Positions 1 to 6,758 of a stretch of DNA of 64,000 bases are shown here, in pieces (positions within the stretch are counted from its first letter, which is position 1; the number at the start of each line of letters is the position of its first letter). The stretch lies in the NCBI RefSeq assembly GCF_007362775.1, contig NZ_CP041692.1:62001-126000 (forward strand). Reading direction: 5' to 3'. The notes under the pieces were generated by a model. That model was not told where the DNA came from. It did not search any database and saw only the letters and a list, made by a program, of their open reading frames with translations. This DNA comes from Microlunatus elymi. GTDB lineage: Bacteria > Actinomycetota > Actinomycetes > Propionibacteriales > Propionibacteriaceae. Position numbers and translations under genes: made by a program.

Positions 1-1978
1 CGGTCATCAGCGACCCCTTCGGCTCGCCGGTGGTGCCGGAGGTGAAGAGCAGTTGAGCGGTCTGCTCGGGCGTCGGCTTCCGCTGCGCCAGGGCCTCGAC
101 GTCAACCTCGCCGGACAGCAGGTCGTTCCAATCGTGCCAGGCCACCGGTCCCGGCACCCAGTCGCCGCCGGACTGCACGTCGCCCGGCAACACCACCACG
201 TGCTTGAGCTCCTCCGGCGGCTCGACACCATCGCCGTCGACCAGCCGGGAGATCTCGGCGGCGTACTCGCGACCGCGGAAGGTCTCCGGTACGAACAACA
301 CGCGAGCCTTGGCTCGGCGCAGCATGAAGGCGATCTCGCGCTCCCGGAAGATCGGCATCAGCGGGCAGCAGACGGCGCCGATCCGCATGGTGGCCAGCGC
401 GATGATCACGAACTCGGTCCAGTTCGGCAACTGCAGCGCCACAGGTTCTCCGGGCTGCACACCGAGCTTGATCAACTGGCTGGCGACGACGTCGACCCGT
501 TGGTTCAGCTCACCCCAGGTGATCTTGGTCGTCGCCCGCGGCCGGGCGTCCAGCACGGCAAGATCATCCGGTCGTTCCTCGGCCCAGCGCGCAAGCCAGT
601 CGGACAAGGTGGTCTTGGCAGCAAGATCGGGACGGCTGGCCTGGATCGGCAACGTACGCTGCGGGCGCTCGTTCTTGCTCGGCGTACCACCCTCGACGCT
701 CATCGGGATGCCGAAGCCGTTCATCGCTTCCAGATAAGCGGGATAGGAGATCCGGTACGCGTTCGGGTAGGTCAGCGTCGACTCGCCGCGAGCGGTCGAC
801 GCAGCCACCGCCAGCGACATCAACACTCGGTGATCGTTGAACGAGGACAGCTTCGCGCCGACCAGACCGTCCACACCCCGTACCCGCAGGATGTCTCCGT
901 CAAGATCAAGGTCTCCGCCCATCTGGTTCAACTGCAGCATGGCCGACACCCGGTCGGACTCCTTCAGCCGGACGTGGGCGATGTTGGAGAAGGTGGTCTC
1001 GCCGTCGGCGAAGGTGCCCATCACGCTCAAGATCGGCAGCATGTCGGGGATTCCGCGACAGTCGATCTTGGTCGGGTTGAGCCGGATGCCGTCGTGCCGG
1101 ATCCTCACCCCTTCGTCGGTCAGCTCCATCGGCACGCCCATCTCCCGGGCGACGTCGAGGAAGTGCACCTCGGGGTGATCGGCCGGCCCACCGGAGAGTT
1201 GATGCAGTCCGCGGAGCAGGATGTCGGACGGATGCAGAGCAGCCGCGGCGATCCCGAACGCCGCCGAACCGATGTCCGGAGGCATGATCAAATCGCACGG
1301 AGTCGCCTGCTGGTCGGGTTCGATCTCGAAGCGACGCCAGTCCGGCGACGCCTTCACGATCAGGCCGAACTGCTTCATCATCTCGACGGTCAGCTCGATG
1401 TAGGGCTGCTCGTTGAGCTCGCCCTCGACCTCGATCACCGTCCTGCCGGTGGCGAACGGGGCGAGCAAGATCAAACCGGAGATCCACTGCGACAGGGTGC
1501 CGGCGATGGTGACGTGACCGCCGGTAGGTCGCTTCGCGGCAACACTGATCGGCGGGCAGTCGTCGGCGGACTCGAGCTCGACGCCCATCTGTTGCAACGA
1601 TCGCAGCAGCGGGCCGACGGGCCGGCGCTGGAAGTACTTCTGACCGGTGACCACGACCGGAGTCTCGGCCAGCGACGCCAATCCGATCATGAAATACAGC
1701 GTGGTCCCGGAACTGCCGGCCGAGACGCTGTCGCGCACTGGACGGTAGGGGCCGCCGTGAACGATGAAGGTGTCGCCCTCGATGTCGATCTTGGTGCCCA
1801 GTCCACGCAACAGCCCGACCGTGTATTGCACGTGCCGCGCATCGGACAATCCGGTGATCCGGCTGACGCCGGGTGCCAGCGAAGCCAGAATCAAGGCCCG
1901 ATGGGCGTGGTATTTCGAGTTGGGTACGAGCGCCTCGCCGGTCAGCCGGCCACTGGTCCCTTTGACGAGTAGATGCAT
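1..1978 (-). CDS. EPSP-synthase-like / acyl-CoA ligase fusion (3' end outside window)
   Basis: One uninterrupted minus-strand frame starts at ATG 1978 behind a GGGAG ribosome site and runs off the left edge; about 659 codons are visible. Residues 1 to about 424 are an AroA (EPSP synthase) fold; from about 450 an adenylate-forming acyl-CoA synthetase begins, with its phosphate-binding loop TSGTTGEPKG at about 646-655. The AroA part keeps NSK, HRAL, LSQW, IPD, LKESDR and FNDHR, so the catalytic Lys, Asp, Glu and two Arg are present. The phosphate-contacting Arg of GTAMRP is replaced (GTTLYF), the Arg before ERP is Tyr, and the late Lys is Arg (AYRISY). These changes argue against a housekeeping AroA. 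AroA homologues and CoA ligases are known in shikimate-to-cyclohexanecarboxyl-CoA routes; I infer a similar use. The exact substrate is unknown. Confidence 0.85.
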   Translation of the reverse strand, partial: MHLLVKGTSGRLTGEALVPNSKYHAHRALILASLAPGVSRITGLSDARHVQYTVGLLRGLGTKIDIEGDTFIVHGGPYRPVRDSVSAGSSGTTLYFMIGLASLAETPVVVTGQKYFQRRPVGPLLRSLQQMGVELESADDCPPISVAAKRPTGGHVTIAGTLSQWISGLILLAPFATGRTVIEVEGELNEQPYIELTVEMMKQFGLIVKASPDWRRFEIEPDQQATPCDLIMPPDIGSAAFGIAAAALHPSDILLRGLHQLSGGPADHPEVHFLDVAREMGVPMELTDEGVRIRHDGIRLNPTKIDCRGIPDMLPILSVMGTFADGETTFSNIAHVRLKESDRVSAMLQLNQMGGDLDLDGDILRVRGVDGLVGAKLSSFNDHRVLMSLAVAASTARGESTLTYPNAYRISYPAYLEAMNGFGIPMSVEGGTPSKNERPQRTLPIQASRPDLAAKTTLSDWLARWAEERPDDLAVLDARPRATTKITWGELNQRVDVVASQLIKLGVQPGEPVALQLPNWTEFVIIALATMRIGAVCCPLMPIFREREIAFMLRRAKARVLFVPETFRGREYAAEISRLVDGDGVEPPEELKHVVVLPGDVQSGGDWVPGPVAWHDWNDLLSGEVDVEALAQRKPTPEQTAQLLFTSGTTGEPKGSLMT

Positions 1979-4415: not shown

Positions 4416-4571
4416 CGGTTCACCTCCGCCATGATCGCCGATCAGCCGTCGGAGCTGCGGGGCCGGTTGGTAGGGCGTGCCTGGCCGCGCGCACGATCGC
4501 GACATTATCGTTGCGGGCACCACACCGCTACACCGCAGGCACTCCAACCACCAACCGGCCGAAGGATCATC

Positions 4572-6758
4572 GTGGCAGCGCTTGAATGGGACACCTCTGC
4601 ACTCACCCTGCAGTTCAGCATCGACACCGACGGCCCGGTCCAGCTGACCGACATCCGGCTCGCCGACCAGCCCGCGGCCGAGTCCGGCCGGGCCCGGCAA
4701 CCGTTGGTCGAGATCCTCACGCCCGCCTGGGGCAACGAGAACTGGGGCAGTTGCAATCGGCACAGCGGCACTCGGATCGGCGCCGATCTGCGTTACGTCT
4801 CGCACCGGCAAGATCAGCACGGCAAGATCAACAGTTTGTCGATCACCCAGATCGCGCCGGAGTCCGGACTGGAGGTGACCTCCGAATTCCGTTCCTACAC
4901 AGGGATCCCAGCGGTGCACGCCACCACGACCGTTGGTGTGCAGGCCGGTTCCGAGCCGGTGACGCTGTGGGCGGTGACCAGTCTGGCAACCGGTGCGGTG
5001 ATCAGTGATCAACCGAACAACCTCGACGTCTGGTACGCGGAGACCAGTTGGTGTGCCGAGAATCGCTGGCGGTCCCGTCCGCTGCGCTCGGCGGGCATGA
5101 TCACCACCGATTCGGCGGCGCGCGGGGCGACCACCCGGGACAGCATCCGAATCTCGTCGGTCGGTTCCTGGTCCTCCGGGGCCTTTCTGCCAGCCGGAGC
5201 CGTTCAAGATCGCGAATCCGGCCGGACACTGGCCTGGCAGATCGAACACAACGGCGGCTGGCAGTGGGAGGTCGGCGAGCGACCGCACACCGTGCCCGCC
5301 GAGGCTGACGAAACCTCGACCGGCGGGCCGGTGGTGGGCAGCGAGGAGGCCGCCGGGCCGCCGCGGACCGAGGGCCGTGACGACGGCGCCTACCTTGCGC
5401 TGCTCGGCCCCATCGACGCGCTGCACCAGTGGTCGTACACCGTGGACGCCGATCATCGGTTCACCACGGTTCCGGTCACGTTCACCGCCGGCACCTCCTT
5501 CGAGGACGCCTTCGGTCAGCTCGCGGCCTATCGACGGGCGGCGCGTCGGTCGCACCCGCAGAACACCGACCTGCCGGTGATCTTCAACGACTACATGGAC
5601 ACCCTGGAAGGCGATCCGACCGAAGCCAAGCTGCTGCCGTTGATCGACGCCGCGGCCGAGGTGGGCTGCGAGTACTTCTGCATCGACGCCGGCTGGTACG
5701 ACGACACGTCCGGTTGGTGGGAGAGCGTCGGCGACTGGGAACCGTCCACGGTGCGCTTCCCGCGCGGGTTGCGATTCGTCCTTGACCACATCCGTTCCCG
5801 CGGCATGATCCCCGGCCTGTGGATGGAGCCGGAGGTGGTCGGGATCACCTCGCGCGCAGCGACGACGCTGCCCGATTCTGCTTTCCTGCAACGCAACGGC
5901 ATTCGAATTCGAGAGCGGAACCGCTACCTGCTGGACCTGCGCAGCACCGACGCGACCGCGCACCTCGACGCGGCGGTCGATCGCTTGATCAGCGAGCTCG
6001 GCGTCGGATTCTTCAAGTTCGACTACAACGTGACACCCGGATCCGGCACCGATCTCGATGCGCCGTCGGTGGGTCACGGCCTGCTCGAACACAACCGTGC
6101 CTTGTTGGACTGGCTGGATCGGTTGCTGGATCGCCATCCGCAGTTGATCATCGAGAACTGCGCCTCGGGCGCGATGCGTTCGGACTTCGCGATGCTGTCC
6201 CGGTTGGCGTTGCAGTCGACCACCGACCAGCAGGATCCGTTGTTGTACCCGGCGATCGCGGCCGGCGCACTGGTGCACCTGCTGCCCGAGCAGGCCGGGA
6301 ACTGGGCCTACCCACAGGCCGCCATGACCGACGAGATGATCAGCTTCACAATGTGTACGGGGCTGGCCGGCCGGATCTATCAGGCCGGTCTGATCGACCG
6401 GATGTCGCCGGCGCAGGAGGCGCTGGTCGCTGCCGGGATCGCTGTGCACAAACAGATGCGGCACGATCTGGTTCGCTCGATTCCGCGATTCCCGACCGGG
6501 ATGCCCAGCTGGGACCAGCCGTGGACCACGGTCGGGTTGGACGCCGGCGAGGCGACCTACCTGATCGCCTGGCGGCAGCAACACGCACCCGAGAGCGTAC
6601 GACTCGAGCTGGCCGGTGTCGCCGACCGGACCATCGAACAGCTCTATCCGCCCGTCGGCACCGTGCCGGACTGGCAGGTCGAGCGGCACTCCGGGGGCTT
6701 GACCTTGATCGCCGCGGAGCCGGTTGCCGCCGCCCGCGTCTACAAGATCACCGACTGA
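4572..6758 (+). CDS. Alpha-galactosidase, glycoside hydrolase family 36
   Basis: Retaining alpha-galactosidase that cleaves terminal alpha-1,6-galactose from melibiose/raffinose-type sugars. I place the start at GTG 4572 because GAAGGA lies five bases upstream; the open frame continues further upstream but without a ribosome site. The 728-residue product has the family layout: N-terminal beta-sandwich, central TIM barrel (about 310-640) and a small C-terminal beta domain. The nucleophile is Asp484 in KFDYN and the acid/base is Asp538 in MRSD of the [11 protein letters not shown] stretch; the WMEPE motif is also present. There is no signal peptide, so it is cytoplasmic and would act on imported oligosaccharides, though no sugar transporter lies nearby. 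It ends six bases from the convergent VanY-like gene. Confidence 0.93.

What the first reader, a model, noticed from the sequence alone, without database searches (positions are those of the whole stretch)
1..1978. EPSP-synthase-like domain fused to an acyl-CoA ligase
Seen: one open frame joins an AroA fold with altered phosphate-contact residues to an adenylate-forming ligase. Known: shikimate-derived cyclohexanecarboxyl-CoA routes use an AroA homologue and a CoA ligase. Inference: this protein may run two steps of such a route, or a new one that converts shikimate-type acids to CoA esters (omega-cyclic fatty acids or a polyketide starter). The gene is cut at the edge, so its neighbours to the left matter.
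Basis: partly seen in the sequence, partly recalled or inferred. Interest (0 to 1): 0.75.

Follow-up and report, generated by a model that had tools for sequence, protein, structure and literature searches.

The report
Cyclohexanecarboxyl-CoA operon in Microlunatus
The two-part protein is real and is the first enzyme of a complete four-gene operon of a known type that should turn shikimate into cyclohexanecarboxyl-CoA, here most likely a primer for ring-tipped membrane fatty acids because this bacterium has no polyketide synthase to use it.

Summary
On the minus strand, one uninterrupted frame (start ATG at window 1978; stop at genome C1:60988, 1,012 bases left of the window) encodes an EPSP-synthase-fold domain joined to an adenylate-forming CoA ligase, 996 aa. 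The cut-off neighbourhood was recovered: the fusion is followed by an acyl-CoA dehydrogenase, an enoyl-reductase-type SDR (Y-x6-K) and a 2,4-dienoyl-CoA-reductase-type flavoenzyme. Seven EPSP-synthase active-site positions are altered in all 81 fused rows examined, including phosphate contacts (S169 deleted, S197E) and K411I, and the genome keeps an ordinary aroA elsewhere. The genome has no modular polyketide synthase but has type II fatty acid synthase with FabH, so the product most likely primes omega-cyclohexyl fatty acids. The operon also occurs in one of four Propionibacterium genomes and, with the fusion partners split, in some Rubrobacteraceae, two lineages with reported omega-cyclohexyl lipids. 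It is a new member of a known kind. Less expected is its spread, mostly outside polyketide clusters, through Actinomycetota and Eremiobacterota. No chemistry was tested.

The parts
1..1978 (-). In-window part of the AroA-like/CoA-ligase fusion gene (PlmJK type); start ATG at 1978, continues 1012 bases beyond the left edge (stop at G000:C1:60988)
722..1954 (-). EPSP-synthase-fold domain with altered shikimate-3-phosphate/PEP pocket
   Evidence: Pfam PF00275 E 1.4e-81; G000:C1:62722-63954; residue mapping
593..721 (-). Inter-domain linker (about residues 443-485 of the 1019-aa reading), no stop
1..592 (-). N-terminal part of the adenylate-forming CoA ligase domain (motif TSGTTGEPKG in the window; rest of domain at G000:C1:60988-62000). 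Further operon genes, all minus strand and outside the window: acyl-CoA dehydrogenase C1:59817-60983, SDR/ChcA C1:58931-59815, 2,4-dienoyl-CoA-reductase-like C1:56875-58911

Best explanation
This is the first gene of a four-gene operon for cyclohexanecarboxyl-CoA (CHC-CoA). Step 1 (inferred): the EPSP-synthase-like half binds shikimate, not shikimate-3-phosphate, and removes water by a 1,4-type elimination, giving a dihydroxycyclohexadiene carboxylate. Step 2 (inferred from intact motifs): the fused ligase half activates the acid as its CoA ester through an acyl-adenylate; the fusion would hand over an unstable intermediate. Step 3 (inferred): the acyl-CoA dehydrogenase, the ChcA-type SDR enoyl reductase and the dienoyl-CoA-reductase-type flavoenzyme carry out the remaining reductions and eliminations, with ChcA making the last reduction of cyclohexenylcarbonyl-CoA to CHC-CoA. 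Step 4 (inferred): in this Microlunatus, FabH of the type II fatty acid synthase uses CHC-CoA as primer, giving omega-cyclohexyl fatty acids. Shown: gene content, order, fusion, motifs, the changed pocket, a separate aroA, absence of modular PKS. Not shown: any reaction or product.
For: Operon content and order equal plmJK-plmL-chcA-plmM. The ligase's best named model is cyclohexanecarboxylate-CoA ligase TIGR03208 (480 bits, below its cut-off of 792); the dehydrogenase's models include cyclohexane-1-carbonyl-CoA dehydrogenase, also below cut-off; the flavoenzyme matches E. coli 2,4-dienoyl-CoA reductase 1ps9 at E 2e-149. The SDR has Y-x6-K in 62/62 and no Y-x3-K; the flavoenzyme Fe-S cysteines are in 63/63; RFEEGT in 71/74 dehydrogenases. 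Pocket: K22, R27, G96, R124, Q171, D313, E341, R344, H385, R386 kept but S23Y, N94S, R100Y, S169 deleted, S197E, N336H, K411I in 81/81. Orthodox aroA elsewhere, 394 bits against TIGR01356. Only two full KS genes, both FabF-like single-domain, plus a fabD-ACP-fabF...fabH cluster. Homologues sit beside modular PKS, ansamycin-type genes or FabH-type genes. The operon occurs in one of four Propionibacterium genomes and, with split halves, in some Rubrobacteraceae, lineages with reported omega-cyclohexyl lipids. Where chcA is missing from the operon in five Arthrobacter/Cellulomonas genomes, it is found elsewhere at 66-68% identity.
Against: No fatty acid or metabolite data were found for this organism; omega-cyclohexyl acids have not, to my knowledge, been reported as major acids in Microlunatus, so they may be minor or conditional. 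One same-genus genome (G547) carries the gene with an apparent frameshift and most same-genus genomes lack it, so the product is dispensable. The residue argument for unphosphorylated shikimate is indirect. The species carrying the operon in Propionibacterium and Rubrobacteraceae are unnamed handles, so the phenotype link is by inference.
Confidence: 0.8

Rival explanations
1. The operon makes CHC-CoA, but as the starter of a secondary metabolite encoded elsewhere in the genome rather than of membrane fatty acids.
For: Close operons in Streptomyces and Actinoplanes lie beside modular PKS (L044, L045, L049, L050), ansamycin-type genes (L025 and others) or FabH-like genes (L054, L073). A second FabF-type KS in this genome lies beside an acyl-ligase gene.
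Against: No modular PKS in the genome: two full single-domain KS only; no obvious biosynthetic genes beside the operon.
Confidence: 0.12
2. The pathway stops short or branches, so that the product is a related ring acid (cyclohexenyl- or dihydroxycyclohexadienyl-CoA) and not CHC-CoA.
For: Some relatives hold only the fused gene, or lack chcA or the flavoenzyme in the operon, so shorter routes may exist.
Against: All four genes are present here, and five Arthrobacter/Cellulomonas genomes whose operon lacks chcA have it elsewhere.
Confidence: 0.08
3. The N-terminal half is a working EPSP synthase, fused to a ligase for some aromatic acid.
For: It passes the NCBIfam aroA equivalog cut-off (305.6 against 287.25), and K22, R124, E341, R344 and R386 are kept.
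Against: Phosphate-contact S169 and S197 and PEP contact K411 are lost in 81/81 rows; a separate orthodox aroA exists; the neighbours are not aromatic amino acid genes.
Confidence: 0.03

Closest known systems
Phoslactomycin starter operon plmJK-plmL-chcA-plmM (Streptomyces sp. HK803; pnP1-P4 in S. platensis, lmP1-P4 in strain ACT232; PMC5852498)
   Same: Same four protein types in the same order, including a joined J+K first gene.
   Different: No polyketide synthase beside it and no modular one elsewhere in the genome; identities of the four parts to streptomycete relatives are about 50-80%.
Ansatrienin (S. collinus) cyclohexylcarbonyl-CoA genes (Cropp et al. 2000, cited in PMC10295569)
   Same: Same proposed route from shikimate to CHC-CoA.
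   Different: From memory the J and K functions are separate genes there; the original cluster record was not held, so this was not tested. Ansamycin-linked loci found here (L025 and others) are fused.
Omega-cyclohexyl fatty acid synthesis of Alicyclobacillus, Curtobacterium pusillum and Propionibacterium cyclohexanicum (PMC5023266)
   Same: Same proposed use of CHC-CoA as fatty acid primer; the operon was found in one of four Propionibacterium genomes.
   Different: No lipid data for this organism; Alicyclobacillus genomes could not be reached.
EPSP synthase (AroA; 1g6s)
   Same: Fold and about half of the active-site residues.
   Different: S23Y, N94S, R100Y, S169 deleted, S197E, N336H, K411I.

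Membership tests
CHC-CoA biosynthesis operon (plm/ans type) | AroA homologue and CoA ligase (joined as JK in plm), acyl-CoA dehydrogenase, ChcA and flavin oxidoreductase in one operon | tested here: met
   order compared with PMC5852498
CHC-CoA biosynthesis operon (plm/ans type) | First gene fuses the AroA-like and ligase domains in PKS-linked relatives too | tested here: met
   L044, L045, L049, L050 fused in frame; the original plmJK record itself was not held
CHC-CoA biosynthesis operon (plm/ans type) | ChcA is an enoyl-thioester reductase | tested here: met
   By motif only: Y-x6-K in 62/62, Y-x3-K in 0; closest NCBIfam model FabL enoyl-ACP reductase, below its cut-off
CHC-CoA biosynthesis operon (plm/ans type) | Makes CHC-CoA from shikimate | not testable with these tools
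   needs expression and LC-MS
EPSP synthase (AroA) | Shikimate-3-phosphate and PEP contacts S169, S197, K411 | tested here: not met
   S169 deleted, S197E, K411I in 81/81 fused rows
Adenylate-forming acyl-CoA ligase | P-loop TSGTTGxPKG, TGD motif, catalytic GK lysine | tested here: met
   PF00501 and PF13193
Omega-cyclohexyl fatty acid producer | Omega-cyclohexyl C17/C19 acids in membrane lipids | not testable with these tools
   no lipid data for this strain in the held papers
Omega-cyclohexyl fatty acid producer | Type II FAS with FabH available and no competing modular PKS | tested here: met

The most novel reading that the evidence does not exclude
The operon is a widespread, largely overlooked membrane-lipid trait: CHC-CoA primes omega-cyclohexyl fatty acids in Microlunatus and also in lineages such as Arthrobacter, Sinomonas, Solirubrobacterales and uncultured Eremiobacterota, where it lies in chromosomal surroundings without modular PKS and automatic annotation by the aroA model would call its first gene EPSP synthase.
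Probability: 0.45. Interest if true: 0.5.

Novelty: new member of a known kind. Interest (0 to 1): 0.36.

Why it matters
It gives a likely genetic basis for omega-cyclohexyl lipids in the Propionibacteriaceae and a sequence signature (S197E, K411I, SKYHxHR) that separates this shikimate-converting branch from true EPSP synthase, which the standard aroA model does not. It predicts a membrane lipid in organisms, Eremiobacterota among them, where I know of no report of it, and it offers natural fused enzymes for making CHC-CoA, the starter of doramectin-type compounds.

Tried and rejected
A viral-contig scan found no relative. An EPSP synthase reading was rejected on residues. A modular PKS partner in this genome was sought and not found. 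Splitting of the fusion by a stop or frameshift was checked and rejected for this genome. No Microlunatus lipid data were found. Structure prediction was not run: fold membership was already clear from sequence, and the pocket of a model could not have been read here.

Full report
Observation. The window is bases 62001-126000 of a single 5.12-Mb contig. Its left edge cuts a minus-strand gene. Recovering the flank gives one frame from C1:64047 (GTG) or 63978 (ATG, window 1978) to 60988, with no internal stop. The ATG is the likelier start: it has an SD-like stretch before it and relatives begin with the same MHLLV. Pfam finds EPSP_synthase, AMP-binding and AMP-binding_C in that order.

Neighbourhood. 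Behind the fusion, on the same strand and separated by 1 to about 20 bases, lie an acyl-CoA dehydrogenase (388 aa), a short-chain dehydrogenase (294 aa) and a 678-aa flavoenzyme related to 2,4-dienoyl-CoA reductase. The published table for the phoslactomycin and lactomycin clusters lists plmJK (AMP-dependent ligase), plmL (short-chain-CoA dehydrogenase), chcA (cyclohexenylcarbonyl-CoA reductase) and plmM (NADH:FMN oxidoreductase) in the same order (PMC5852498). The SDR carries the Y-x6-K of enoyl reductases and not the usual Y-x3-K, in 62 of 62 relatives, and the flavoenzyme carries the Fe-S cysteines in 63 of 63. This fits ChcA and a dienoyl-CoA reductase.

The AroA half. Against E. coli AroA the fused family keeps K22, R27, G96, R124, Q171, D313, E341, R344, H385 and R386, but in all 81 fused rows examined (80 distinct organisms or loci, one present twice) S23 is Tyr, N94 Ser, R100 Tyr, S169 is missing, S197 is Glu, N336 His and K411 Ile. 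S169 and S197 contact the 3-phosphate of the substrate and K411 contacts PEP (from my knowledge of the E. coli structures). An acidic residue at 197 is unlikely to tolerate a phosphate there, which fits unphosphorylated shikimate as substrate. The genome has an orthodox AroA elsewhere (394 bits against TIGR01356), a MurA and a MurA-like protein. The window protein nevertheless passes the aroA cut-off (305.6 against 287.25), so annotation by that model would misname it.

Distribution. A scan of the GTDB species genomes found 270 places encoding a relative of the AroA half; the best 80 were read. Most carry the complete operon, fused: Streptomyces, Actinoplanes, Lentzea, Sinomonas, Solirubrobacterales, Acidothermus and Eremiobacterota MAGs among them; a quick tree puts the window beside M. 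endophyticus. Contexts differ: modular PKS (L044, L045, L049, L050), ansamycin-type genes with DegT aminotransferase and type II dehydroquinase (L025 and others), FabH-like genes (L054, L073), or no modular PKS motif in the stretch held, including a group in Sinomonas and Arthrobacter next to ribosomal-protein genes. Five Arthrobacter/Cellulomonas genomes whose operon lacks chcA have a 66-68% identical chcA elsewhere. In 20 same-genus genomes the gene is in four, one of them with an apparent frameshift in the AroA half.

Use of the product. This genome has only two full ketosynthase genes, both single-domain FabF type, and a fabD-ACP-fabF cluster with fabH. Without a modular PKS, priming of fatty acid synthesis is the simplest use of CHC-CoA. 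Support comes from two lineages. The same operon, fused, is in one of four genomes of a genus that is Propionibacterium, since another member's MutB is letter for letter that of 1REQ (that 1REQ is from P. freudenreichii is my knowledge); P. cyclohexanicum has omega-cyclohexyl acids (PMC5023266). With the two halves as adjacent separate genes it is in some members of a family that is Rubrobacteraceae, since another member has the rhodopsin of 6KFQ exactly (the source organism of 6KFQ is my knowledge); C19 omega-cyclohexyl acids are reported in Rubrobacter (PMC13412118). That the carrier genomes are the lipid-bearing species is inferred, not shown.

Mechanism. Shown: fusion, operon, motifs, changed pocket. 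Inferred from published work on CHC-CoA (Moore and Floss; Cropp, Wilson and Reynolds, cited in the papers, content from my own knowledge): elimination of water from shikimate, CoA ligation, alternating reductions and eliminations, last reduction by ChcA. How an EPSP-synthase fold would eliminate water is open; retained R124, R344 and R386 leave an anion site that could hold a carboxylate or PEP, and I do not decide between them.

Verdict. The kind is known, the fusion included; the novelty lies in host, in the wide distribution mostly outside polyketide clusters, and in the misleading aroA model.

Noticed in passing
L114:4742-4782 (G547, same genus): The fused gene is interrupted by an apparent frameshift in the AroA half while the rest of the operon looks largely intact.
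   Followed up: partly
L056, L064, L078: Second copies of the fused gene in Streptomyces sulphureus, S. xiaopingdaonensis and S. albus have no acyl-CoA dehydrogenase, chcA or flavoenzyme in the 8-10 kb downstream, and each is followed on the other strand by a related large ORF (about 950-1040 aa); perhaps a shorter route to another ring acid.
   Followed up: no
L036, L037, L068, L070, L079, L080, L082, L083, L088, L096, L098: In Sinomonas and a group of Arthrobacter the operon lies between ribosomal-protein and elongation-factor genes, an unusually fixed chromosomal place for a supposed secondary-metabolism operon.
   Followed up: partly
L061, L066, L076, L092, L094, L097: Other Arthrobacter-type operons lack the flavoenzyme and lie near 3-hydroxyacyl-CoA dehydrogenase and thiolase genes.
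   Followed up: partly
L004 (G000:C1:3088976-3090235): A further enolpyruvyl-transferase-fold protein of 520 aa: an N-terminal stretch that reads like an XRE-type helix-turn-helix joined to a MurA-like domain.
   Followed up: no
L113:4717-7758 (G000:C1:4732717-4735758): A second FabF-type ketosynthase gene lies beside an adenylate-forming ligase gene, away from the main fab cluster.
   Followed up: no
window 4431-6758: Plus-strand gene of 775 aa that reads like a GH36-type alpha-galactosidase upstream of the operon; a similar gene is beside the operon in M. endophyticus (L117) and G547 (L114), so part of the surroundings is shared.
   Followed up: no
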